From positions 1 through 64,000 of the IMG/VR virus record IMGVR_UViG_3300049255_000083: 64,000 nt of DNA. One strand, given 5' to 3'. Position 1 is the stretch's first letter; each line of letters begins with the position of its first letter. Below are positions 1 to 58,410 of the stretch, piece after piece. The notes under the pieces were generated by a model that was not told the DNA's origin, made no database searches, and saw only the letters and a list, made by a program, of their open reading frames with translations. A program made the position numbers and the translations under genes. The DNA is from a virus.

Positions 1-39
1 AACTCCGGTTAGCATCGTTCAAGTCTCGAATGGGATCGC
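1..39 (+). mobile_element. right end of a TnpB-type (IS605/IS1341-like) element, cut by window edge
   Basis: These 39 bases are identical to 20559-20597, where the same stretch follows a tnpB gene and ends the element. An element of the same family must therefore lie to the left, on the plus strand, with only its right end visible here. In this class the right end is the 3' part of the omega (reRNA) guide RNA, and the bases just outside act as guide. Here the guide would start around base 40 and run into the 3' end of the gene ending at 47. Confidence 0.75.
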
Positions 40-46
40 GACACCC

Positions 47-568
47 TCAGCCGAGCGTGATCGTGAAGGTCAGCGTCAGGGTGTCCGAGGTGAACAGGGT
101 GCGCTGGGTGAACGAGATCTCGTGGTTCATCACGCCGGCCACCGGGGGACCGGCCTGAGTGAAAAGGGCCGTCTTTTGCACGCCCTGGGAGCTGGCTCCC
201 GAGTACGTGAAAGTGTACGAGATCGTGGTCTGATTGCCCGAACCAGAAGCGAGGGTCACGTTGCCCTGCACTCGAGAAAGACCGTTGCCGGTCAGCTCGC
301 TCGCCAGGCTCGTGTCCGACGCGCTGGGAGAAGCGCTGTCGTTCGTCAGACCGATCCAGTTGAACCCGTTCGTGAGGATCGAGGAGGTCGCGTAGCACTG
401 GGTGTGGAGCTGAACGCGCCCCGTGTTCGTGAGGAGATTGAACGCCTCCTCGTCGTCGTCCACCTGCTTGTACAGGTAGATGCCCCGCTTCTCGTCGAAG
501 TCATACGCCCGTTCCTGGTGGATGAGCAGTCGGGCCTGGGGAAGCGGCACTCTCTCGATGATCTCCAT
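47..568 (-). CDS. phage tail (fibre-like) structural protein
   Basis: 173 aa. The N-terminal ~60 residues are a charged linker (MEIIERVPLPQ...). The rest is a beta-rich, Ser/Thr-rich domain with the pattern NWIGLTND, TSLASELTGNG, GLF-like ALFTQAGP and a terminal TLTLTFTITLG. That pattern resembles widespread short phage tail-fibre or tail-tip domains (family resemblance judged by eye). It is the last gene of the baseplate run, after the J and I-type genes, where tail-fibre genes usually lie. A start at 568 is supported by a purine-rich RBS (GAGGGAGAGG) and by a promoter-like motif at 588-604. Its stop is 7 bases from the end of a TnpB element. Confidence 0.6.
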   Translation of the reverse strand: MEIIERVPLPQARLLIHQERAYDFDEKRGIYLYKQVDDDEEAFNLLTNTGRVQLHTQCYATSSILTNGFNWIGLTNDSASPSASDTSLASELTGNGLSRVQGNVTLASGSGNQTTISYTFTYSGASSQGVQKTALFTQAGPPVAGVMNHEISFTQRTLFTSDTLTLTFTITLG

Positions 569-16928: not shown

Positions 16929-19163
16929 TCAGAGGCTCCGGTTGACGGCACACCCCATGAGCGGGAGGCCCGTGATCCAATCGAGTGACGGGGCGCCAGG
17001 CGGCATCATGGGCGTTCCTCGAGCGATCCCGAGCACCGCCGCCGGACCGCCGAGAAGGCTCTGGGGCGCCACGAGGGACACCGCCACGCCCGATGTCACC
17101 GTCGCGGCCAAGCCCGCCGTGATGCTCACCGCCGCCCCCGCCGTGGCCGAGTAGGCACCACCCGCCGTCTGGGAGATGGCGCCTCCAGCCGTGGTCGAAG
17201 CAGCCCCGCCCGCCGCCAAGGAGTACGCCGCACCTACGTTGTCCGACATGGCGCCACCCGCCACGTTCGTGACCTGGGCGCCCGCGAGGACGTTGCGGAT
17301 GTACCCGCCCGCGAGGATGGTCTGGATTTTCCCGCCCGCCGCGATGTTCTCGAGCACGACGAGGGCGTAGTTCATCTGGGTCTTGCCCGAAATCATGTGG
17401 TTGTACTCCGCCGCGTTGAGGGAGTAGCCGTAGATCCCGTTGATGAGGACGCGCGTGCCCTGCTGGGTGATCTGCCCGTCCACGATGGTGTGGTGCGAGC
17501 CGTTGACGGTCGTCACCGTGTCGCCCGTGATGGCCCTTCGGTGGTTGCCTCGGATGTTCTCAGAGAGCGCGTTGTTGTCGTTGTCGTTCCCGCCGAGGTA
17601 AGTCGCGTTGACCGAGCAGTGGTAGACGGGCGTGAACCCCTTGCCGCGTGCGTCGGGTCCGAATTCGACGTGGACCGAGCCCTCGCAGAAGAGGTGAACG
17701 CTCTCGCCGGAGAGAGCTTCTTTGCCGATGTACGCCTTGAGGCCGCCTCCGAGGCTCGCTTCGAGGCTGACGTTCTTGGTCCCGTCGTAGGTGTCCTCGA
17801 CGGTCGAACCGGGGATGTTGACGAAGGTCTTGCCCTGCTTCGAGACGCAGATCGCAAACGGGTCGTCCTCGGCGTTGCCCGAAGGCGGGTTGATGCGAAA
17901 GAGGTACGCGCCAGCTTGGTTGTTGACTTCGAGGTCGCTCGTGCCAACCGTGCGAGTCGCCTCCAGCATCTTGAAGCGGCCCGGCTGCGACGACTGCCAG
18001 TTGTCAAAGAGGGACGGCTTGAGGACCCGCCCATAGAGGTTCATCCCGTCGTCGGTGTTCGGGTCGTTGCCGACGACCGTCCCGAGAACGTGCTCGATGT
18101 AAAGGCGCGGATGGTAGGTATCGACGTTGAAGCCGTCGATCTCGTCGAGGACGTCCTGCACCGCGTCGGTCGTGTGTTTCAGCTCGACCCGATGCTCGGT
18201 GAAGATGTCCGCCGGCGACTTCTGGCTCTCGAAGTTCGCGTTCGGGATGGTGGCGGCGAAGAAGACCTTGCGCCCGTTCGAGTACGTGACCGGCGGGAAC
18301 TCCGCCGTGTTGTTGAAGAAGGCGTTCACGACGCCGCTCTTGTTGCAGTACTTCGTCGGGTCGCCCGTGTTACCGGGTCCGAGCCCTTCAAGGACGCTCT
18401 GGCCGAAGTAGTGCTCTTGGATCTGCGGCGAGATGGAGTTGGGCTTGGCCGGGTTGTCCCCGCCCGGTGCCTCGACGAGAGGCTTGGTCGGGTCGTTGTT
18501 CTGGAAGATGTCGTAGGGCAGGTAGAAGGCCCCGCGACGCGCAGGGCCGTACTGGACCTTCACGCCCGATGACGAGTGGAGCGTGTTGATCGACTGCGTG
18601 ATGAGGGTCCGCTCGGAATCGCGCAGCTCGATGAGGTCGCCCGCGCGGTTGAGCATGACGATGCTGCGGTTAAGCACCAGCTCCGAGCCGTCCGCGGACA
18701 TGCCACCGACGTCGCCGGGGCGGAGCTTGAGGCGCTTGACCCGGTAGGTCGGGCTGAAGAGCTGCTTGTAGAGGTCCGCCTCGTCCGAACTGACCGTGGC
18801 AGGGTCGTCGGGGGCGATCGGGTGGAAGTTGAGCCCACCGCGCGAGGCGACGGGCAGGTAGCCGACGATCATCGGCTCGCGGACGATGCCCTTGCCGTGC
18901 TTCGGCCGGTATGCGAGGACGACGACGCTGTTGACCTCGGGGACGCCACCCCAGAACGAGCGAGGTCCCGACATGGCCTGCGTGAGGTCCAGCTCGAAAG
19001 CGTCTGCGCCACCCGTGATGACACGGATGTCGGCCTTCATGTGAAGCTCGTCGACGCGCGTGATGACGCCGATGCGCAGAGCGCCGGGCGGAGCGTCTTG
19101 GAACTCTTTGCCTCCCCATGTACCGGGGGCGTGTCTCGGGGTCTCGGGGAACTTGTTCGCCAT
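16929..19163 (-). CDS. baseplate spike / central hub (gp5/VgrG-like) protein
   Basis: 744 aa. The N-terminal ~120 residues (GVITRVDELHMKADIRVIT...VNSVVVLAYRPKHGKG) fit the OB-fold that opens T4 gp5 and P2 gpV spikes. The middle carries beta segments around residues 150-600. Residues about 620-700 are short Ala/Gly repeats (AGGYIRNVLAGAQVTNVAGG, AGGAISQTAGGAYSATAGAA), the pattern expected of a trimeric triple-stranded beta-helix needle. No lysozyme domain is fused; lysozyme is instead in the 24218-25942 protein. The promoter region has been separated from the hub gene by the TnpB element. Confidence 0.8.
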   Translation of the reverse strand: MANKFPETPRHAPGTWGGKEFQDAPPGALRIGVITRVDELHMKADIRVITGGADAFELDLTQAMSGPRSFWGGVPEVNSVVVLAYRPKHGKGIVREPMIVGYLPVASRGGLNFHPIAPDDPATVSSDEADLYKQLFSPTYRVKRLKLRPGDVGGMSADGSELVLNRSIVMLNRAGDLIELRDSERTLITQSINTLHSSSGVKVQYGPARRGAFYLPYDIFQNNDPTKPLVEAPGGDNPAKPNSISPQIQEHYFGQSVLEGLGPGNTGDPTKYCNKSGVVNAFFNNTAEFPPVTYSNGRKVFFAATIPNANFESQKSPADIFTEHRVELKHTTDAVQDVLDEIDGFNVDTYHPRLYIEHVLGTVVGNDPNTDDGMNLYGRVLKPSLFDNWQSSQPGRFKMLEATRTVGTSDLEVNNQAGAYLFRINPPSGNAEDDPFAICVSKQGKTFVNIPGSTVEDTYDGTKNVSLEASLGGGLKAYIGKEALSGESVHLFCEGSVHVEFGPDARGKGFTPVYHCSVNATYLGGNDNDNNALSENIRGNHRRAITGDTVTTVNGSHHTIVDGQITQQGTRVLINGIYGYSLNAAEYNHMISGKTQMNYALVVLENIAAGGKIQTILAGGYIRNVLAGAQVTNVAGGAMSDNVGAAYSLAAGGAASTTAGGAISQTAGGAYSATAGAAVSITAGLAATVTSGVAVSLVAPQSLLGGPAAVLGIARGTPMMPPGAPSLDWITGLPLMGCAVNRSL

Positions 19164-19286
19164 GCTATTTATGCGCTCCCGCGAACTTTTTGTTTACCAA
19201 TGATTTCAGTGAGTTCCACGCTGTTCACCAGAGAACGGCTAAGTTGACACTTGACGCCAAGGTTGGCCCCTCGCATCATGTACCTC
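19164..19286. other. junction between spike upstream region and TnpB element left end
   Basis: On the minus strand, GCATAAATAGC (19164-19174) lies just before the spike ATG and resembles a T4-type late promoter core (TATAAATA). A GGGAG lies further out, at wide spacing. Somewhere between here and about 19250 phage DNA gives way to the left end of the plus-strand element; without an empty-site copy I cannot place the boundary. The plus strand includes TTTAT at 19168-19172, one possible TnpB target-adjacent motif. Confidence 0.35.
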
Positions 19287-19439
19287 ATGGTGGCTCCCAA
19301 GAAACGGCAGCGCGTCGAGGGGATCAAAATCCACTTCGATCCGCCGTTGCTCGCATGGCTGCGACTCGAAGCAAAGCGACTCGACGTATCGATCTCCGAG
19401 GTCCTGCGGCGGCTCGTCCGCAAGGAGATGGGCGCGTGA
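19287..19439 (+). CDS. small ribbon-helix-helix-like protein of the TnpB element
   Basis: 50 aa from MVAPKKRQRVEGIK; an ATG at 19251 is an alternative. The pattern IKIHFDPPLLAWLRLEAKRL followed by DVSISEVLRRLVRKEM fits a beta-strand, helix, turn, helix fold, as in CopG/Arc-type DNA-binding proteins. The stop overlaps the GTG of the tnpB reading frame (GTGA at 19436-19439), so the two are translationally coupled. A role as repressor of the element or of tnpB is inferred. Confidence 0.6.
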   Translation: MVAPKKRQRVEGIKIHFDPPLLAWLRLEAKRLDVSISEVLRRLVRKEMGA

Positions 19440-20570
19440 TCCTCGGCCAGCGCATCCGGCTCGATCCGAACAACGTTCAAGCAACGTTCTGCGGCCGGTG
19501 GTAAGCCGAACTGGCGGGCGCTCAACGCCGAGCTGAATGTTCGCAAGGCCACGGACCTCACCTGGATGAAGGAGATCCCCTGGGCGGTCTCGAACAATGC
19601 TCTCCAAGATCTCGACAACGCCTTCTCTCACTTTTTCCGGCGGGTGAAGCTCGGACAGAAGCCAGGCTATCCAAGGTTCAAGTCGAAGAAGCGAAGCACT
19701 CCGTCCTTCGCCATCGAAGCCAGAGCCCTCCGCTTCGATGGGCGCCGCATCAAGCTCCCCAAGCTCGGCTGGGTTCGCACCCGGCAGGAGCTTCGTTTTC
19801 CGGGCAAGATTCTCTCGGCACGATTCACGAAGCGCGCCGGTCACTGGTACGTCTCGATCATGGTCGAGATCGATGAGTCCCGCTGGTCGTATCCCCACCG
19901 TTGCGAAACTCAAGCAGCGGTGGGGATCGATCGTGGAGTCGTCGATCTCGCCGTGCTCTCCAGTGGAGAGAAGATCGAAGCGCCCCGCGTCCTGCGGCAG
20001 TACGAGGACAAGCTGCGACAGCTCAACAAGGAGCTGTCGCGGCGCACCAAAGGAGGTCAGAACTGGCAGAAGACCAAGGCGAAGCTCGGTCGCTTGCACG
20101 AGCGGATCGCCAACATCCGGCGCGACGTGACACACAAGCTCACTACGAGCATCGTGCGTCGCTTCCGATGGATCGGCATCGAGGACCTCTGCGTCAAGGG
20201 CATGGCGCGCACCCGGCTCGCCAAGTCGATCATGGATGCCGCGATGGCCGAGGTTGGACGCCAGCTCAACTACAAGGCGCCGCTCGCCGGAAGCACCATC
20301 GTGCGGGCCGACCGCTTCTACCCGTCGTCGAAGACCTGCTCGGTTTGCGGCGTCGTCTACGCTGACCTCGTGCTCGGCGAGCGACGCTGGACGTGCGACA
20401 CCTGCGGCGCCGATCACGACCGCGACGTGAATGCCGCGAAGAACCTGGAAGCTCTGGCCGCCGCCCTGGCGGTGACAGCCTGTCGTCAAGGGAGCGCTGG
20501 TCCCGATCTTCGGGTCGGAACGAAACTCCCTCTTGGGCAGGAATCGAGCAGCGCTGTTAACTCCGGTTAG
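19436..20570 (+). pseudogene. tnpB: tnpB RNA-guided nuclease gene, 5' disrupted
   Basis: The typical TnpB N-terminus (MILGQRIRLDPNNVQATF...) begins at the GTG at 19436 but hits a stop at 19504. The remainder continues in another frame (GGKPNWRALNAEL...), so bases are missing around 19485-19500. An intact frame from ATG 19566 to 20570 gives 334 aa with all catalytic parts: RuvC D122 (VGIDRGV), E206 (IGIEDL), DRD 285-287 (DRDVNAAKN) and zinc Cys 258, 261, 277 and 280. The lost segment would hold part of the wedge domain that binds RNA and target-adjacent motif, so the protein is probably inactive or altered. It lies antisense to the tail genes, between spike and hub. Confidence 0.8.
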
Positions 20571-20597
20571 CATCGTTCAAGTCTCGAATGGGATCGC
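20480..20597 (+). ncRNA. putative omega RNA (reRNA) and right end of the TnpB element
   Basis: TnpB guide RNAs come from the 3' end of tnpB plus the right end. This stretch can fold (GGGAG...CTCCC around 20490-20530 enclosing CCCGATCTTCGGG). Its last 39 bases (20559-20597) are identical to 1-39. The guide would begin at 20598, exactly at the complement of the hub gene stop codon. The 5' limit given is approximate. Confidence 0.5.
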
Positions 20598-23500
20598 TTA
20601 CCCTGCGTTGCCGCCCGCGTTCGGCGTCTGGGTGCCTTGCGCCTGCTTCGCGCGGAGTTGCTGAAGCTGCAAGCTCTCCGACGCGATCTTCTGCTGGAGC
20701 TTCGTGATCTGTTGCTGGAGGGATGCCACTTGCTGTGGCGTGAGGCTCGCTTGCGTCCGCGTGAGCTGCGCCTGGAGCTGGGCGAGGTCGTTCTGGTCGC
20801 TCGAGAGCTGGGTCGAAAGGGCCGCGATCTGCGTGTTGGCCTGGAGGTTCTGCCCGAAACTGTTCCATGCCTGGCTGATGTTCGCCGCTGACGTCTCGGC
20901 TTGCTGGGCGATGGCGTTTGGATCGCCCGTGGCGAAGCGGCTCGTCGGACTGAACGGCGGCGGGAAATTGCCGAGCGCGGAGTTCGGCCCGACTTGGAGC
21001 GTGCCGTTGGAGCCCGGTTGGGGCGCCTGGTACGAGCCACCTCGAAGCTCCGCCTCGTACTGCTGGTGAGGCGTGTCGAGCGCCATGTAGAGGTTGAAGA
21101 GGAAGTCGTCGATGATGGTCGTGACCTGATCGGGCGAGAGCGAAGCGAGGCTCGGAGATACGCTCGAGCCCGCCTTAGCCGAGGACGCCTGGAGCGCCTG
21201 GTACTGCGAGTTGAGCGAGTCGAACTGGGCTTGATCGGCGGCGAGCGCTTGTTGGGCCTGTTGGATGAGCGCCTGGTCCCCCGACTGCTGCGCCGCCTGG
21301 AGCTGGACCTGGTCGAGTTGGACCTTCTGCTGAGCGGCCGAAATCTGATTCAGCAAGTCGAGCGCTTGCTGCTGCGCTTGGGATGGTTGCGATGTCCCGC
21401 CCGCGATTTGAGGACTCCCCACGGCCGCGAAGGCGTTGGGGTTGTAGAGGGACGTGGGGTCTTCCACCGTGCCGGCGATGGTCGGGAGCAGTTTGTAGCC
21501 CGTCGAGATGAACGCCAGGTCGCTTCGGCCCAGGAGGCACGAGCACTGGGGCTGACCCGAACTCGTGCCGTCTTGCGACCCAAGCTGGTCGACAACGGTC
21601 ATCTCCGCGAGCGTGAGGCCCGCAGCCAGCTCGGACGCCTCGACGCTAGGATAGACCCCCCTCTGTTGGGGGGAGCCGAGGACGGGCAGGTTCGCGAAGT
21701 TCGTCTGCGTGTTGCCGTAGCTTGCCTGCCCTAGCCCCGAGGTCCCATCGACGCTGGGCGTCGTGAAACCCGACGTGCGCAGGTCGTCCGGTTGGAGCTG
21801 GGCGAGAGCGTTCACGGGGTTAGGGTAGCTGTACGTGAGCGACGTGAGGCCCTGGGACTGCGCCGTGAGGGACGCGAAGAGATCCCCACTCAGGGCGACC
21901 TGGATGCTCACGTTCGCCGCCTGATAGTTGTCCTGGCCTCCGACTTGGATGAGCTGCCCATCGCTCAGGCTCAGTCCACGCCCGTATCGGTAGTGTCCGA
22001 TGACCTCGAAGCCGCGCTCGTCGGACACGGGGCGGATCATCGTTGTGGCGTTTTTGACCTTCGGCGTCGTGTCCGTCGTGTTCGATGTTGCAGTGTTGAG
22101 CTTGCCCGCGGGTACGAGCACGAGTTCCCCGATGACGCCCTGGGTTTGCGATTGCGTAGCCGGACTGTTCGCTTTGCCGATGTCGTGCGCATAGACGAAC
22201 GTGCCCGCGGACGTGAGGCCGAACCACGAACGGTTCGTGAGGTGCTTGTCCGTGATCTTCGAGTAGGCGTCCGCGGTCACCCGCGAGAGCTGCTGCTGGG
22301 CTGCCGTGGTTTGGTTCTCGATGACCTTCTGCCGCTGGGCTGCGTTCACACGCTTCGACGTGTTGCCTACGCCAGCGACGTCCTCCCAGTCTCCGATGCT
22401 CCCGGCGTAGGGCTGCAAATACGCCATGACCACGTTCGGGTAGCCGAGGATTCGACCGCTCTGGGGGTCACGGAGAATGAGCGGCTGGTACGGGTTGCTG
22501 TTCGGATTGGCGGCCGTGAGGTCCACGGGATAGGCGGGGACCTCAGCCGCATCCCCAGCCTTGAGGAGGAAGGTTCCTCCGTCCGAGAGCTGGGCCCCCG
22601 TGTACTGAATGCCCGCACCGGCAAGGTTCGCCTTGCCAGGGTTCGTCCCCGTGCCGGGCTTGGCGGCGCTCGGGTTGTAGTTCGTGAGGACGAGTGTCCC
22701 GATGCCCTGTGGCGCCTTGAACTTCTCGCGACGAGCGGTGAGCGTGAGTGTCGTGGTCGCCCGCCCGCCGAACGAGATGTTGTGCGAGATGCCCTGGATG
22801 TACCAAATCTGATCCTTGGGCGCGATGTAGATGGGGAACCCCATGCGCAGCTCGGGACGGAACGGGATAGTCACCGTGCCCCGGTGGCGGCGGGAGTTCA
22901 TTTTGTCGAGCAGGTCGAGCCCGTAATAGAACATGTGCAGGGCGTTGTTGCCCATGAACTCCGAGTTCACCTGCTGCGGACGCCACCCGTACTTGCGGAG
23001 CAGGTGATAGTCCGTGACGTTCGTGAACGGAGTCATCTCCGCCGGCCAACCCCAGTCGGTGTTGCCGGAGTAGTTGCCCTGGATCGTGAGCTGAGTGACG
23101 ACCTCGGCCTCGGAGTCGGAGAAATCCCACTCGATGATGTCGATGTCCTGAATCCACGACACCGGCTTGTTCGAGAGGATGTCGAGATTGTAGAAGGGCG
23201 GCTTGAACACGATGTCGCCCGTCGTGTCCATGTAGAACTCGTAGCCGATCGCCTCCTTGGCGGCGTTGGCAATCTCCAGCTTGGTCTGGAACTCGCTCTG
23301 CCAGAAGTTCACGCCGAGGCTTGCGTTGTTGGTGCGGACCGATGTGACGCTCGGGTCGGTCGGGTCGTAGAGGAGTTGGGCGCCTTCATCGCCACCGTTC
23401 GCCATGCGGACGGTCTTGGACGCGAGTGTGCGCGCGTCGGCTCCGGCATTCTTGCTGTTGAACTGCTTCTCCTGAAGGACGTCGCCCCGCACCGCGACTC

Positions 23501-24218
23501 CCGAGGAGCCGTAGAGCATGAGGTTTCGCGAGACCGCTTGGAACCTCTGCGACCAGTACGCCATGATGTCGGAGAGGGCCGCCATGAAGACAGGGCGCTG
23601 GGGCGAGTCCGTGGTGAGGGTGACGAGCGACCCGCCTCCGATCACGATGTCGCCGTAGGCCTGCTGGGCGAGCGTCCAGATGATGTCGAAGGGGTTAGCC
23701 CCCGAGAACACGTTGCCGTTGAGCGTGATGCCGAACTTGCTCGGGACCGGCGACGTATACGCCGGGTTCACGTTCATCTTGCACAGCTCCCACCACTTGA
23801 GGATGTCGGAGCAGTGGATGGCGACCGAGTGTTCGCCCGAGGAGTACGAGTCGCTGACCTCGGTCACGAGACCCCAGAAGATGGGATAGTACTGCGGCAG
23901 CCCTTCGACGAGGTAGTACCCCTTGGCGTAGATGTTCACCTCCATCATCGGGGAGATGACCGGCACGTTGTCGAAGTAGAAATCGTCGATCGTGTGGCGC
24001 GGAACCGAGAGGCTGATGGAAGCCGAGCCGGGCACGCTATCGATCGAGAGATCGACCTGGATGCTCGTGATGTACTTGTTGATGTCGAACGAGCTGTTGC
24101 ACGTGGGGCAGCCGACGACCTGGGTGCTGTTGTTGATGAGCACGATGGCGTCCGGCGCCGTGACCACCACTTGGCGGGCGTTCGGCTGGAAAGTGCCTTG
24201 GAACGGACTACGGGCCAT
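20598..24218 (-). CDS. baseplate hub protein (gp27 / gpD-like)
   Basis: 1206 aa. The N-terminal ~500 residues hold hub-type features: a CPTCNSSFD start region, SIQVDLSIDSVPGSASISLS, an FDNVPVISPMMEVNIYAKG strand and an IFWGLVTEVSDSYSSG motif. These are typical of the tube-like hub domains that close the end of the tail tube and hold the spike. The C-terminal third is Gln/Ala-rich with two likely coiled coils (about residues 965-1010 and 1130-1195). Its start shares a base with the stop of the lysozyme-bearing gene, and it directly precedes the spike apart from the TnpB insertion. It is about twice the length of typical hubs. Confidence 0.75.
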   Translation of the reverse strand: MARSPFQGTFQPNARQVVVTAPDAIVLINNSTQVVGCPTCNSSFDINKYITSIQVDLSIDSVPGSASISLSVPRHTIDDFYFDNVPVISPMMEVNIYAKGYYLVEGLPQYYPIFWGLVTEVSDSYSSGEHSVAIHCSDILKWWELCKMNVNPAYTSPVPSKFGITLNGNVFSGANPFDIIWTLAQQAYGDIVIGGGSLVTLTTDSPQRPVFMAALSDIMAYWSQRFQAVSRNLMLYGSSGVAVRGDVLQEKQFNSKNAGADARTLASKTVRMANGGDEGAQLLYDPTDPSVTSVRTNNASLGVNFWQSEFQTKLEIANAAKEAIGYEFYMDTTGDIVFKPPFYNLDILSNKPVSWIQDIDIIEWDFSDSEAEVVTQLTIQGNYSGNTDWGWPAEMTPFTNVTDYHLLRKYGWRPQQVNSEFMGNNALHMFYYGLDLLDKMNSRRHRGTVTIPFRPELRMGFPIYIAPKDQIWYIQGISHNISFGGRATTTLTLTARREKFKAPQGIGTLVLTNYNPSAAKPGTGTNPGKANLAGAGIQYTGAQLSDGGTFLLKAGDAAEVPAYPVDLTAANPNSNPYQPLILRDPQSGRILGYPNVVMAYLQPYAGSIGDWEDVAGVGNTSKRVNAAQRQKVIENQTTAAQQQLSRVTADAYSKITDKHLTNRSWFGLTSAGTFVYAHDIGKANSPATQSQTQGVIGELVLVPAGKLNTATSNTTDTTPKVKNATTMIRPVSDERGFEVIGHYRYGRGLSLSDGQLIQVGGQDNYQAANVSIQVALSGDLFASLTAQSQGLTSLTYSYPNPVNALAQLQPDDLRTSGFTTPSVDGTSGLGQASYGNTQTNFANLPVLGSPQQRGVYPSVEASELAAGLTLAEMTVVDQLGSQDGTSSGQPQCSCLLGRSDLAFISTGYKLLPTIAGTVEDPTSLYNPNAFAAVGSPQIAGGTSQPSQAQQQALDLLNQISAAQQKVQLDQVQLQAAQQSGDQALIQQAQQALAADQAQFDSLNSQYQALQASSAKAGSSVSPSLASLSPDQVTTIIDDFLFNLYMALDTPHQQYEAELRGGSYQAPQPGSNGTLQVGPNSALGNFPPPFSPTSRFATGDPNAIAQQAETSAANISQAWNSFGQNLQANTQIAALSTQLSSDQNDLAQLQAQLTRTQASLTPQQVASLQQQITKLQQKIASESLQLQQLRAKQAQGTQTPNAGGNAG

Positions 24219-26719: not shown

Positions 26720-29700
26720 TTACCGCTTCGTCCTGTTCCGCTCGTGGTTCGCGATCTGATTCTGAGCGCGGGCGTCGATGATGCGGGCCAGGTCGCCCTT
26801 CAACCGCAGCTCGACGACCTGGCCACCTGCGGCTGCGCCGACCGTAGCGCCGCCCGTTCGTGCAACAGGGGCGAGGCCCGCAACGGGGTTCTGCTGGTAG
26901 TACTGCGACGCGACCCGGCTGAAGCTCTTGAGGTCTCCCATCGTGGTGCCTTGCTCGTCAGCCGTCTGCGCCCACTTCGAGACGGCGTCCGCGTTCGTGA
27001 GCATGGCGTAATCGAAAAGGGCGTCGCTCGCGGCGTCGTACACGCCATCCGTGATGACCTTTTTGACGTTGTTCTCGAGGAACGGCCGGTCGATCTTGAT
27101 CCCACGGAACCGGAGCGCCCGATAAATGTCATCGAGAGAGCCCCCATGCTCGTCGAGAGCGTCCTGGGTCTCTTCGTCCCGCTTCTCGGCATGCGTGTCG
27201 TGGACGTAGATGGAGTGCGGCGTGAGCATCTTCTGCGCGGCGATAGCCGTCTCAGGCGGATTGGCGTCTTCAATGGCCTTCTGCATCTTGTCTAGGCCAC
27301 CCACCATCTGCGCGGCGATAACCGTCTCAGGCGGATTGGCGGCTTCAATGGCCTTCTGCATCTTGTCTAGGCCACCCACCATCGCCTGGAACGGGAACTG
27401 GTTCATCGCCTCCTTCATCGCGTCGCCGATGACGGCGGGGTCGATGCCGGCTTGAGACATCGCGTCCGTGACGTCCCCGGTGAACGCGGGGTTCTGCTTC
27501 AGCTCATCGAGCTTCTTCTGGACCTTGTCGAAATCCTGCTCACTCAGCTTGCCCTTGATGATCTTGAGGGCGTCATCCGAGCTGATGTTCTTGAGCGTCA
27601 GCTTCTTCATTTCGTTGAAATGCGCCTTCGCAAGGGCAAGCTCGGCCGAGAGCTGTGCCTTCTGATCGGCCGGCGTCTTGGGGTCGTCGAGCTTCTTCTG
27701 GAGGTTGGTCATCTTCTCGACCTGCTTGTCGATGGCCTGACCCATCTTGCCGAACGTGCCCTTTTGCAGCTCCTCGCGCATCTTGCACGTGTCGCCCTGA
27801 GCCTTGCCGAAGGCACTGATCAGTTCCGAGTTGCCGGACTTCTGAACCATGCGGCTCTCTTGGAGCTGTTCACGACGGCTCTTGGTGTTGTCACCCCCGA
27901 CAACCTTGTCCACCAGGTCCAAGAGGGCGTCATACGTGTCGGACAGGATCTTGTAGAGCTGGTTCATCACGAAATCGACGAGGATGCCGATCTTGTCCTG
28001 CACGCTCGTCTGGAACTTAGAGGTCTCCTTCTGGAAATCGATTTCCGTTTTGCCGTCTTGGAGCAGGCGCTTCTGGTCGGCCGACATGGCGTCCCACACC
28101 TGCTTGGCCTTAAAGTCGCGTAGCTTCTTAGCCGCGGCGCCGGCAGTGCCGTCGATTTTGAGGGCCTTGAGAGCGTCCGTCTCGGAGTCAGTAAGCTCGA
28201 TCCCCTTCTCGAGCTTGTGTGCCAGGTCCGCCTGCATCTGCTCGACGGCCATGTTGAGTTTCGCGAAGGCGTCTTGCTGCTCGTCCGAGACGCCCATGGC
28301 CTGCTCAGCACCAAGACGCTCGACCCCCTTCAGCTCCTCGAATTTCTTTCCGAACATCTTCATCGACTCGGACTGGAGCTGCTCCATCGTGTCAAACGGG
28401 TCGAGGTTTCCGATGGCGCTGGCCAGGTCCACGGGCGTGCCCGCAACGATCTTGCTCTGCTGGCGGGCGGCTTCGTAGATGGCCTTCTTCGTGTCGTCGG
28501 TCATGCCCTCGCCGTTGTCGGCGATCCACTTGGCGAGTTCCTTGTCCGACTTCTTCAGGACCTGCTTCAGGATCTGCGGGTCCAGCTCCTGTCCGGTCTC
28601 CGCCCCGATACGACCAGCGAGCCCTTCGAGCTTCTTATCGAAGCTCTTCATGTAATCGGCCGAACCGCGACCTCCCATGAGAACGTGCTTCGTGCGCTCC
28701 CCGAGGCCCTGATTCTTGAAAAATCCCGTGACGCCTTGAAGGAACTTCTGAGCATCGCGCGGGCTCATTGCCTTGCCCAGGCCGATCATCACCTTCGTGA
28801 TGTCCTCCATGCGAAGGGTGAACAGCGTGAGGTCGCCGGAAAAACCTCGGATGATGTTGAAGAACTTGTTGGTCGCGATGCCCGCTTCTTCAGCACCACG
28901 GATCATGTACTGGAACGACGTCTCGACATCGACGAGGTTCATACCGAGATCGGTCATCATCTCGCCCTCGAGCTGACCGATCTCTTGGAGACTCACGCCG
29001 AATGCAAGGGAGTACGCGACGGACATCTGCGTGAGCTTGCTCCAATCGGAGGCGTAGCCCGCGGCACCTTTCGAGTCCTTGCCGACCTGCTTGAACGACT
29101 CGTCGAGCTTTTTCAGGCTGACGCCCTCGGCCGTGATGGCGTTGAGGACAGCCTGGTGGGTCTCCTTGTTGATGCCCCAGTCGAGATTGTCGAGACTCGT
29201 CGCCTGGTCACGAATCTTCGTGAGCGTGTCTTCGAGATCCTGCGCGCCTGCCCCGACCGACTTCAGATTCTTGTGGAGGAACTCGGAGCTGCCAGCGGTC
29301 GATAGGATGTTCTTGTTGAACTCCTTTGCGCCCGCTTCGGCGTCGATGAGAAGCTGAACGATGGACGCGATGGCGCCTGCGGCCATCGAGAGGATCGGCC
29401 CGAGCGTTTTGAGCGTGGTGCCGAGTTTGCCGATGATGTCCCCCATCTTGCCCATCGCCCCGCCGCCACCGCCGGCTGCGGACATCTTGGCCCCGAGCTT
29501 CCCGAGACCGCCACCCACCGCCCCGAATCCGCGACCCAGGATCTTGCCCGCGAGCTTCGCCATCGTGGGCACGTCTTTGGAGAGAACCGCCTTGAGCGGC
29601 GCCGAGATCAGGTCACCGATCTCCTCCCCGGCGTCGAGGGCCGCATCGGTGACCTCCTTGGGGTCGAACTCGAACTTCTCTTTGATCTCCTCGCTCCCCT

Positions 29701-52156: not shown

Positions 52157-52666
52157 TCACTCGCCCGCGCCGGCCTCGGACAGGAGCTTCTCGATGTCCT
52201 TGGTCGTCTTGCCGAGGTCGGCCACCCAGTCCACGAAGAAGTCGAAGGCGCCCTTGAGGTACTCCCACGCCTTCACGAGCGCGCCCGAGAGGAAGTCGAG
52301 GAGACCCGCCGTGCGCGGGGCCACCGCCGGCGCCTGCTCGGGGCCGGGGACGTCCATGCCCTTGTCGAAGCGCTCGATGGCGTTCTTCAGGCTCTCCAGA
52401 ACGGCCTTTTTGCCGAGGTCCTTCTCGGCCACCATCATCATGAACTGGAACTCCTTCTCGAACTCGATGGCGTAGTTCGCGGCCTTGTCCTTCTTCTCAG
52501 CCGCCTTCGTCAGCGCTTCGAGCTGTTCCTTGGCCTTGGCGAGTTCCTTCTCGAACTTCGCCATGTCGCTCTTGGCCTCTTCGAGCCACTTCTGCTTCTG
52601 AGCGACGCCCTTCTGGCTCTTGGCCTTCGAGAGACCGTACTCGGGAAGTTGCTCAAAGTTGGTCAC
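52157..52666 (-). CDS. helical protein next to TnpB, start uncertain
   Basis: 169 aa from a GTG at 52666 (VTNFEQLPEYGLSK...). The longer frame from 52783 reads through TnpB DNA and is not used. A long Lys/Glu coiled coil (about 20-65; SDMAKFEKELAKAKEQLEAL) is followed by helices and a hydrophobic-aromatic region near 130-160 (VKAWEYLKGAFDFFVDWVAD). GTGA overlaps the TnpB stop. No good RBS lies before the GTG, so the TnpB insertion may have removed its natural start or made it depend on coupling. Function unknown. Confidence 0.5.
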   Translation of the reverse strand: MTNFEQLPEYGLSKAKSQKGVAQKQKWLEEAKSDMAKFEKELAKAKEQLEALTKAAEKKDKAANYAIEFEKEFQFMMMVAEKDLGKKAVLESLKNAIERFDKGMDVPGPEQAPAVAPRTAGLLDFLSGALVKAWEYLKGAFDFFVDWVADLGKTTKDIEKLLSEAGAGE

Positions 52667-54078
52667 TGGGCAACCACCTGATTTGAGGCTGTGCCGGACC
52701 GTAGAGGTACTCCGGTAGTAAGCCTCCGGCTCGACGGTACGAGCGCGTTCTGTACTGACTCTCCCAAGGAACTCGTTCGGCAATGTGCCCGAAATCGCTC
52801 TCTCAGCAGTGTCTTCACTGCGGACGGGTGATCATCAAGACCAACTTGTTTGTCCTCGGAACGTCCGAGCAAGTTGATCCCTCCCACCACGTCCGCGTGA
52901 CTTTTCCTGCCGCATGAGCGGCAGATGAACTTGATCCCTGACCTATTGCTCCTGGAGACGTAGCCGCAGCTAGGGCATGTCTGGCTTGAGTAGGCGGGGT
53001 TGACGACCTCGCAGGGGGCCTTCGTGGCAAGGCTGTGATGCAAAGCTCGATAGGCGAAACGCTTGGCCCCCCGGCAGCCGCGAAGGTCGAGATCCTCAAC
53101 GACGAACACGGCGCTGGGGTGAGCTTCCACGAGCTTGTTTGCACACTCACCGGCCACTGTCTTGACCAGCCCAGTGAGCTTGGCTTCAAGGTAGTCGAGC
53201 CTGGGCGAGTTTTCCTTGAATCCTTGTCGTTGTCGGTTCGCTCGAAGGTTGCGAACCTTTTGGTACAAGGTGTCGAACTTCGGTTTCAACGAGGCTCCGA
53301 GAAGCCTCCCTGACGACGTAGCGGCCATCACGTTGAGGCCAACGTCAATGCCGATCTTGGGGGCATCCAGATCACGCTCCGGCACTTCCCATTCCTTGCG
53401 CTCGACGACCTCGAAGCGCCATCGGCCTTGCTTGGTTTTGCGCGCCAAGATGCCTTTTGAGACATCGGCTACGTCTTTGCAGTAGGGACTCGCCGCCAAC
53501 GGAAGCTGAATCCTGGCCTTCCCCGCCTGTAGATGGGAGAACCCAAGCCACCACTGAGTGACCTTCGTGTCCGTTGTCATGCTGAGCACGGCGGTCATCT
53601 CGCTCATCCGCATCCCGCAACGGCTGGAGATGCTTGGCGCTCGCCCGACGATGACTTCGTCGAGCAACCATGACCAATAGAGATCGAGAGCTTCCTGGGT
53701 GACCTTGCCCCCTGGCTTGTCTACAAGGCGCTTACCGATGATATAGAGAGCTGAACGGGTTGCCTCGTCGATCTCCTGTGCTTTGAACTTCTGCTTGATG
53801 AGCGACTTGAGCTTTGCTGTGTACTTCGATGCTGCCCACCCCGAGACGATACTGAGGGCGTGATCTCGGACGTTCTTGACGATTTGGCTGGAGAGTGTCT
53901 CGCACCCAGGGAAGAACGCCTGCTTCTCCCTGAGCGACACAGTGAACCTGTGGGTCGCGAGCATCGCTTGGACGCAGACTTCAAGATAGGCTGCATACTC
54001 TGCTTGGAGAGCTTCCAAGGCAGCGATCTTCCCTAAATTTGCCTCTGTGTGCAGGTAGAGAAAGCGGGACTTCTTCAC
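52663..54078 (-). CDS. tnpB: TnpB-type RNA-guided nuclease, intact
   Basis: 471 aa from a GTG. RuvC residues are in place: D245 (IGIDVGLN), E328 (VFVVEDL) and D396 (SHADVVGGINLLG). The zinc finger is C368, C371, C386 and C389 (CPSCG...CRSCG). The N-terminal ~235 residues fit the WED/REC region (LHTEANLGKIAALEALQAEY). It should cut DNA matching a guide RNA made from its own 3' end. The last ~45 codons overlap a strongly foldable stretch. It is unlike the 19.4-20.6 kb TnpB in sequence and lies on the opposite strand. No TnpA is seen, so it may depend on others for transposition or act as a homing-type nuclease. Confidence 0.85.
   Translation of the reverse strand: MKKSRFLYLHTEANLGKIAALEALQAEYAAYLEVCVQAMLATHRFTVSLREKQAFFPGCETLSSQIVKNVRDHALSIVSGWAASKYTAKLKSLIKQKFKAQEIDEATRSALYIIGKRLVDKPGGKVTQEALDLYWSWLLDEVIVGRAPSISSRCGMRMSEMTAVLSMTTDTKVTQWWLGFSHLQAGKARIQLPLAASPYCKDVADVSKGILARKTKQGRWRFEVVERKEWEVPERDLDAPKIGIDVGLNVMAATSSGRLLGASLKPKFDTLYQKVRNLRANRQRQGFKENSPRLDYLEAKLTGLVKTVAGECANKLVEAHPSAVFVVEDLDLRGCRGAKRFAYRALHHSLATKAPCEVVNPAYSSQTCPSCGYVSRSNRSGIKFICRSCGRKSHADVVGGINLLGRSEDKQVGLDDHPSAVKTLLRERFRAHCRTSSLGESVQNALVPSSRRLTTGVPLRSGTASNQVVAQ
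52670..52765 (-). ncRNA. putative omega RNA at the 3' end of the minus-strand tnpB
   Basis: The stretch can form nested stems (ACCGT/ACGGT around GCCGG...CCGG) within and just past the last tnpB codons, as expected for reRNA scaffolds. The guide would continue into the 52157-52666 gene. Boundaries are estimates; the exact right end of the element is not known. Confidence 0.4.
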
Positions 54079-57949: not shown

Positions 57950-58410
57950 CTCTTCACGCTGACATGCACCGTCGTCCCAGGCTGCACGGGCGGCTTGGCC
58001 GGTTGGATGACAGTGTGTACCGTGGGCGGAGGTTGGGGAACCGATCGAACGACCGGGAGGCCGTTGCTCGGCGGGGGCTTGGGCGGAGGGAAGTGGTGCG
58101 TGACGGTCGGCGGGAAGACCCCGAAGGCGGAGTCGGCCGAGATCGAGCACTGGACGTGGTCTTCACCGCCGGCGTTCGCCGAGAACGACGAGGTGGCAGA
58201 GATGCTCGACGAAACGCCGCGATGGGCCTCCGCCGTCGCCGAGAACGACGAGGTGGCAGAGATGCTCGACGAAACGCCGCGATGGGCCTCCGCCGTCGCC
58301 GAGAAAGTCGCCGTAACCGCGACCGTGACGGCAGCGATGAACGCCGCCTTCACGGATGCGGAGATCGAGGAGTCAGCCGTGATCGAGCAGGTGGCTGCTT
58401 GGTCTGCCAT
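57946..58410 (-). CDS. repetitive Ala/Ser-rich protein with Pro-rich tail
   Basis: 154 aa. The N-terminus (MADQAATCSITADSS) resembles the start of the 55923-56924 protein. Residues about 37-76 are two identical 20-residue units (SATAEAHRGVSSSISATSSF) coded by a perfect 60-bp duplication. The C-terminal third is Pro-rich (PPPKPPPSNGLP, PQPPPTV) and ends in a strand (GTTVHVSVKR). Likely a fibrous surface or linker protein; function unknown. Confidence 0.5.
   Translation of the reverse strand: MADQAATCSITADSSISASVKAAFIAAVTVAVTATFSATAEAHRGVSSSISATSSFSATAEAHRGVSSSISATSSFSANAGGEDHVQCSISADSAFGVFPPTVTHHFPPPKPPPSNGLPVVRSVPQPPPTVHTVIQPAKPPVQPGTTVHVSVKR
58181..58300 (-). repeat. perfect 60-bp tandem duplication
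   Basis: Units 58181-58240 and 58241-58300 are identical at all 60 positions. The identity at synonymous sites shows the copy is recent; being in frame it adds 20 residues. Confidence 0.95.

What the first reader, a model, noticed from the sequence alone, without database searches (positions are those of the whole stretch)
1..39. Two TnpB elements end next to stop codons of phage genes
The 39-base right end at 1-39 is identical at 20559-20597. One abuts the stop codon of the hub gene (20598), the other lies 7 bases from the stop of the tail gene (47). Both read antisense to the operon. Insertion exactly at gene ends avoids damage, and the predicted guides match the last codons of conserved structural genes. 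This is the arrangement expected if TnpB acts like a homing endonuclease against relatives without the insert.
Basis: partly seen in the sequence, partly recalled or inferred. Interest (0 to 1): 0.7.

Follow-up and report, generated by a model that had tools for sequence, protein, structure and literature searches.

The report
Broken TnpB element at gene junction
A large phage carries a decayed copy of a small mobile element that encodes an RNA-guided DNA cutter (TnpB), plus the end of a second copy; such elements land neatly between genes, probably because their landing signal looks like a start codon read backwards.

Summary
The 39-mer at 1-39 recurs exactly at 20559-20597, reads antisense to both neighbouring genes, and sits next to stop codons. 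Position 1 is also the first base of the viral contig, so "element 1" is 39 bases of a right end and no TnpB gene is seen there. Element 2 (19164-20593) is a transposase-less RHH-tnpB-omegaRNA element. Its tnpB lost a net 68 nt and its frame against intact relatives, so the start of WED and much of REC are gone; RuvC, the zinc finger and the omegaRNA end remain. Family members were found in other phages: L107 is intact and lies between tail-sheath stop and the next start, and one AT-rich phage has at least 5 full and 7 TnpB-less copies. They show that the right end stops at GGGA, that the left end follows YCAW (12 of 14 sites), and that this motif is often the antisense start codon of the next gene. 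This explains the position beside stop codons. The predicted guides match no available relative better than shuffled guides, and 23 relatives have the empty junction. Homing by this copy is therefore unsupported. It is a decayed member of a known kind with an informative insertion rule.

The parts
1..35 (+). right end (3' end of omegaRNA scaffold) of a second copy, cut by the start of the contig; bases 36-39 (TCGC) are also shared with copy 2 but are probably flank
   Evidence: identical to 20559-20593; family right ends stop at GGGA
36..55 (+). predicted guide of copy 1 (first ~20 nt after the right end), reading into the end of gene 47-568
   Evidence: inferred from TnpB biology (PMC8612924); sequence
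47..568 (-). 173-aa tail-region gene; stop codon 47-49, 11 bases from GGGA of copy 1
   Evidence: relative with empty junction in L033
16929..19163 (-). 744-aa structural gene (weak baseplate hub/lysozyme similarity); its start codon is antisense of CAT 19161-19163
19160..19163 (+). CCAT, putative target/TAM motif (YCAW) just left of the element
   Evidence: YCAW in the same register at 12 of 14 sites of the family
19164..20593 (+). whole element of copy 2, 1430 bp (right border uncertain by 1-4 bases)
   Evidence: left border by alignment with L107 and empty junction in 23 relatives; right border
19287..19439 (+). 50-aa ribbon-helix-helix (CopG-like) protein, stop overlapping the tnpB start
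   Evidence: Pfam RHH_1 21.0 bits, cut-off 20.5; homologous ORF at same place in L037 and L107
19436..19504 (+). 5' remnant of tnpB: GTG start, 22 codons, then TAA caused by a net 68-nt deletion
   Evidence: full-length homologs L107 (401 aa) and L037 (400 aa)
19566..20570 (+). remaining tnpB frame (334 aa): RuvC D/E/D and zinc-finger cysteines kept, start of WED and about half of REC missing
20457..20593 (+). omegaRNA scaffold / right end, conserved secondary structure
   Evidence: 12 of 43 pairs with double changes kept; z = -2.08
20594..20613 (+). predicted guide of copy 2, covering the stop and last codons of gene 20598-24218
   Evidence: inferred
20598..24218 (-). 1206-aa structural gene whose stop codon abuts the element

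Best explanation
Copy 2 is a decayed member of a phage-borne family of transposase-less TnpB elements (small RHH gene, tnpB, omegaRNA right end). Family members insert 3' of a YCAW motif. In tightly packed operons this motif is often CAT, the antisense start codon of the downstream gene, so the left end abuts that start codon and the right end abuts the stop codon of the upstream gene. Both genes stay intact and the element lies antisense. The RNA reading out of the right end would carry the upstream gene's last codons as guide. In an intact member, TnpB with that RNA would cut YCAW+guide empty sites and so restore or spread the element. In this copy tnpB is frameshifted after 18-22 codons, so it is most likely inert or dependent on TnpB supplied in trans. 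Copy 1 is another insertion of the same family at a similar junction, of unknown completeness. Shown: sequence identity, broken frame, conserved RNA fold, family, insertion register, gene junctions, empty sites in relatives. Inferred: TAM function, omegaRNA expression, cutting, and mobilisation by an unseen transposase.
For: Right ends and borders. Broken tnpB. Intact relatives: L107, 76% identity over 335 aa; L037; at least 5 full and 7 short copies in one phage. Conserved RNA fold, also in TnpB-less copies. YCAW at 11 of 13 sites (expected frequency 0.019) plus L107. Left end at the start codon of a long minus-strand ORF and right end 0-11 bases from the stop of another, in W, L107, full3 and full5. 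Empty junction in 23 relatives and in L033. No Y1 or serine recombinase beside the family members.
Against: No empty site of the same strain was found, so borders and TAM rest on comparison between copies. The motif and its register were chosen after looking. Two of 14 sites deviate (CTAA, ACAT), and two of the supporting sites (sh2, sh7) have poorly alignable left ends. About nine sites are not at start codons. The 334-aa frame is still open and dN/dS against L107 is about 0.22, so some function of the truncated protein is not excluded (but in GC-rich DNA long open frames are common by chance).
Confidence: 0.68

Rival explanations
1. One reading: both elements are active TnpB homing systems that cut insert-free relatives at the conserved ends of structural genes and are copied in by repair.
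For: Right end and RNA fold intact; RuvC triad kept; related phages have empty junctions; TnpB gene drive is known on plasmids (PMC11870625).
Against: tnpB of copy 2 frameshifted; no TnpB seen for copy 1; guides match no sequence in relatives better than shuffled guides; relatives carry the element at other junctions.
Confidence: 0.1
2. Insertion beside stop codons reflects only selection: in a dense phage genome just intergenic insertions survive, and no motif is involved.
For: Several copies sit in ordinary intergenic spots, not at start codons.
Against: YCAW stands in the same register at 12 of 14 sites, where 1.9% per site is expected; within the start-codon sites the motif lies in the host gene, not in the element.
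Confidence: 0.15
3. Copy 1 is an assembly artefact: the contig begins in a repeat, and the 39 bases were joined to the tail gene wrongly or come from a strain variant.
For: It lies exactly at the contig end and is exactly repeated elsewhere; the near-identical contig G001 does not cover it.
Against: The junction follows the family rule: 11 bases from a stop codon, flank matching the position of an inter-gene gap in L033.
Confidence: 0.15
4. The truncated TnpB is a repurposed RNA-guided regulator (TldR-like) that no longer cuts.
For: Frame open for 334 codons; RHH gene and RNA scaffold retained.
Against: TldR proteins lose RuvC residues and keep DNA binding (own knowledge); here the reverse holds: RuvC is intact and the N-terminal TAM/REC part is lost. 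The guide would point to its own locus.
Confidence: 0.04

Closest known systems
IS1341-type (TnpB-only) elements of the IS200/IS605 superfamily
   Same: a single TnpB gene without transposase, omegaRNA in the right end, insertion 3' of a short motif
   Different: RHH gene overlapping the tnpB start in the window, L037 and L107; apparent motif YCAW; the G032 relatives have ~30-45-bp inverted repeats between left and right ends, not typical of IS605 elements (own knowledge)
ISDra2 TnpB (Deinococcus radiodurans; PDB 8bf8, 8h1j, 8exa)
   Same: closest natural solved relative by sequence (7e-64); RuvC D/E/D and zinc finger aligned
   Different: TAM TTGAT and the TAM-contacting residues differ; the window copy lacks WED 1-12 in frame and much of REC
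IS607 elements with TnpB
   Same: one of the related phages (G028) has serine recombinase plus TnpB 48% identical to the window's
   Different: no recombinase here; matching dinucleotides at the two ends not above chance
TnpB as homing or gene-drive nuclease (ISDra2; IS200/605 on plasmids, PMC11870625)
   Same: guide copied from the insertion site, empty sites as targets
   Different: no target-bearing relative found and the nuclease gene is broken

Membership tests
TnpB RNA-guided nuclease family (NF040570) | profile match above curated cut-off | tested here: met
   window ORF 248 bits, cut-off 100; Pfam OrfB_IS605 94.5 bits and TNB domain 73.1 bits above cut-offs
TnpB RNA-guided nuclease family (NF040570) | RuvC D-E-D triad and zinc finger | tested here: met
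   alignment of six proteins
TnpB RNA-guided nuclease family (NF040570) | intact WED/REC for RNA and TAM binding | tested here: not met
   net 68-nt deletion and frameshift in the window copy; domains mapped; met in L107 and L037
TnpB RNA-guided nuclease family (NF040570) | omegaRNA from the right end with flank as guide | tested here: inconclusive
   conserved fold with compensatory changes; expression not testable here; no Rfam family matches
IS1341 (TnpB-only, IS200/IS605 superfamily) | no Y1 transposase or serine recombinase in the element | tested here: met
   contigs are incomplete genomes
IS1341 (TnpB-only, IS200/IS605 superfamily) | insertion 3' of a fixed short motif, no target duplication | tested here: inconclusive
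   YCAW at 12 of 14 sites; no same-strain empty site, two-base match at the ends not significant
IS607 | serine recombinase gene | tested here: not met
   none in the window's record or the family's records, only in G028
homing endonuclease behaviour | guide matches insert-free alleles in relatives | tested here: not met
   best 4-6 mismatches of 20, equal to shuffled guides
homing endonuclease behaviour | same site occupied across relatives | tested here: not met
   23 relatives empty; family members at other junctions

The most novel reading that the evidence does not exclude
A phage-specific TnpB element family uses a landing and cutting motif (YCAW) that reads start codons antisense, so that it settles in the stop-start seams of structural operons. 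It spreads without its own transposase, with omegaRNA-only mini-copies carrying separate guides served in trans by a few intact TnpBs.
Probability: 0.12. Interest if true: 0.6.

Novelty: new member of a known kind. Interest (0 to 1): 0.36.

Why it matters
It gives a testable rule for how TnpB elements live in gene-dense phage genomes without breaking genes: the motif they need is the reverse of a start codon. It also points to an intact, compact TnpB (L107, 401 aa) and a phage with a dozen copies, including TnpB-less omegaRNA copies, in which trans-acting guides could be tested. For the window itself the lesson is sober: the copy is broken and should not be called an active homing nuclease.

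Tried and rejected
Empty sites of the same strain: flank searches for two G032 copies found only occupied sites. Guide targets in relatives: none above chance. Relatives in cellular genomes by exact peptide patterns: none; DNA-level relatives in phage records: none; plasmids only short 65-87% pieces. Rfam: no match. IS607-type matching dinucleotides at both ends (8 of 12): not above permutation, p = 0.27. Terminal inverted repeats: clear in 9 of the 12 G032/G033 copies, absent in the window copy and L107. L105 matched the right-end pattern but sits inside an open reading frame whose sequence resembles a primase, without TnpB: a chance match. Literature: no paper in the searched library joining TnpB with ribbon-helix-helix proteins in the sense needed.

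Full report
OBSERVATION. Bases 1-39 and 20559-20597 are identical, and shuffles never give a match. The search tool reports that the window is bases 1-64000 of a 79,227-base viral record, so copy 1 begins exactly at the contig end. The 39-mer occurs twice in the record, and the 23-base core occurs in IMG/VR only in a 43,939-base contig (G001) that is 100% identical to the window over the stretch compared. The stop of gene 20598-24218 touches copy 2; the stop of gene 47-568 is 7 bases from copy 1. Both genes are on the minus strand, while the ends and the tnpB frame are on the plus strand.

WHAT COPY 2 IS. Between the start codon of gene 16929-19163 (CAT at 19161-19163) and the stop of gene 20598-24218 lies 1.4 kb. 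It holds a 50-aa RHH protein (Pfam RHH_1), a TnpB frame 19566-20570 (OrfB_IS605 and Cas12f1-like TNB domains; NF040570 above cut-off) and a structured right end. In 23 relatives found through the 20598 gene the same junction has no insert. Gene 47-568 has a relative in L033 (62% aa) whose following gene starts 26 bases after the stop, again without insert.

THE TNPB GENE IS BROKEN. L107 (401 aa, 76% identical over 335 aa) and L037 (400 aa) show the full gene. In both, the RHH stop overlaps the tnpB start. In the window the gene starts with GTG at 19436 but has lost a net 68 nt after about codon 18, and stops at 19502-19504. The remaining frame starts at residue 67. By alignment with ISDra2 TnpB and its domain map (WED 1-12 and 117-176, REC 13-116; PMC10097598), the first WED strand and much of REC, which contact the TAM, are lost. 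The RuvC triad and zinc finger remain. The identical G001 contig shows the same deletion. The surviving frame against L107 gives dN 0.17 and dS 0.78, mostly history from before the break. No other close copy exists in the 79 kb; the contig is probably a fragment, as hub-gene relatives lie on contigs up to 452 kb.

THE FAMILY. A profile search found an AT-rich phage, assembled several times (G032-G036), with at least 5 full copies (88-93% identical in DNA for the pairs compared) and at least 7 copies of about 280-295 bp that lack tnpB but keep the left end and the last 140 bases. The last 140 bases fold into a conserved structure in 14 copies, window included: 43 pairs, 12 with double changes that keep pairing. 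So the right end is very probably an omegaRNA scaffold, and the short copies look like omegaRNA-only elements. All right ends stop at GGGA, after which sequences diverge. The TCGC shared by the two window copies is beyond the family border. In nine of the 12 copies of G032/G033 the left end is an inverted copy of the right end; the window and L107 lack this.

THE INSERTION RULE. Aligned left ends show [CT]CA[AT] in one register just outside the element at 11 of 13 sites; genome frequency of the motif is 1.9% (binomial 7e-18, with motif and register chosen afterwards). L107 adds CCAT. In the window, L107, full3 and full5 the CAT is the antisense start codon of a minus-strand ORF of 744, 144, 595 and 246 codons, and the right end lies 4, 0, 8 and 11 bases from the stop of another. 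In L107 the genes are the tail sheath (phrog_279) and a small virion protein; in full3 the downstream protein begins MTKKVPIKYTARDFE, which resembles baseplate wedge proteins (own knowledge). Joining the borders in the window gives GGGTAAGCG(A)ATGGCG on the minus strand, a normal stop-start spacing with a Shine-Dalgarno-like GCAGGG. So the 'stop codon' position follows from a start-codon-like motif in compact operons. Other copies lie in ordinary intergenic places, or after plus-strand genes.

HOMING? TnpB biology predicts that the flank after the right end is the guide and that empty sites with TAM are cut (PMC8612924); a gene-drive effect is reported on plasmids (PMC11870625). Here the guides TCGCGACACCCTCAGCCGAG and TCGCTTACCCTGCGTTGCCG have best matches of 4-6 mismatches in the loci of relatives, like shuffled guides. 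Targets could exist only in near-identical siblings. Neither a Y1 transposase nor a serine recombinase is present in the family's records, so mobilisation would have to come from elsewhere. G028, one of the related phages, has an IS607-like pair of serine recombinase and TnpB.

VERDICT. A real, decayed TnpB-only element plus the edge of a second copy; ordinary in kind, useful for its insertion rule and its intact relatives.

Noticed in passing
window 52663-54078 (-): A second, divergent TnpB-like protein (471 aa; Cas12f1-like TNB domain, 91 bits to NF040570, just under its cut-off of 100). The identical contig G001 ends inside it.
   Followed up: partly
L107 2963-4470 (IMGVR_UViG_3300025018_000466): Intact RHH-tnpB-omegaRNA element (TnpB 401 aa) exactly between the tail-sheath stop and the start of a small virion gene; the best candidate for a working member.
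   Followed up: yes
L074-L093 (G032-G036, IMGVR_UViG_3300025117_000031 and overlapping contigs): One phage with at least 5 full TnpB copies and at least 7 short copies without tnpB that keep the omegaRNA end; inverted repeats of about 30-45 bp between left and right ends in most copies.
   Followed up: yes
L073 / L044 (G028, IMGVR_UViG_3300037722_000745): Related large phage with a serine recombinase beside a TnpB (IS607-like) that carries one in-frame TAG.
   Followed up: no
LR745208.1 (485 kb uncultured phage): Three TnpB places in one large phage genome, best 44% identical to the window's TnpB.
   Followed up: no
L037 5500-5640: An intact member sits at the 5' end of an EF-G-like gene, whose first codons seem displaced.
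   Followed up: partly
L003 14884-15227 (record 78884-79227): The other end of the contig lies in a direct repeat with a period of about 230 bases, so both contig ends are in repeats.
   Followed up: no
window 27232-27383 and 58176-58305: In-frame-length tandem repeats of 75 bases (97% matches) and 60 bases (100% matches) inside long ORFs.
   Followed up: no
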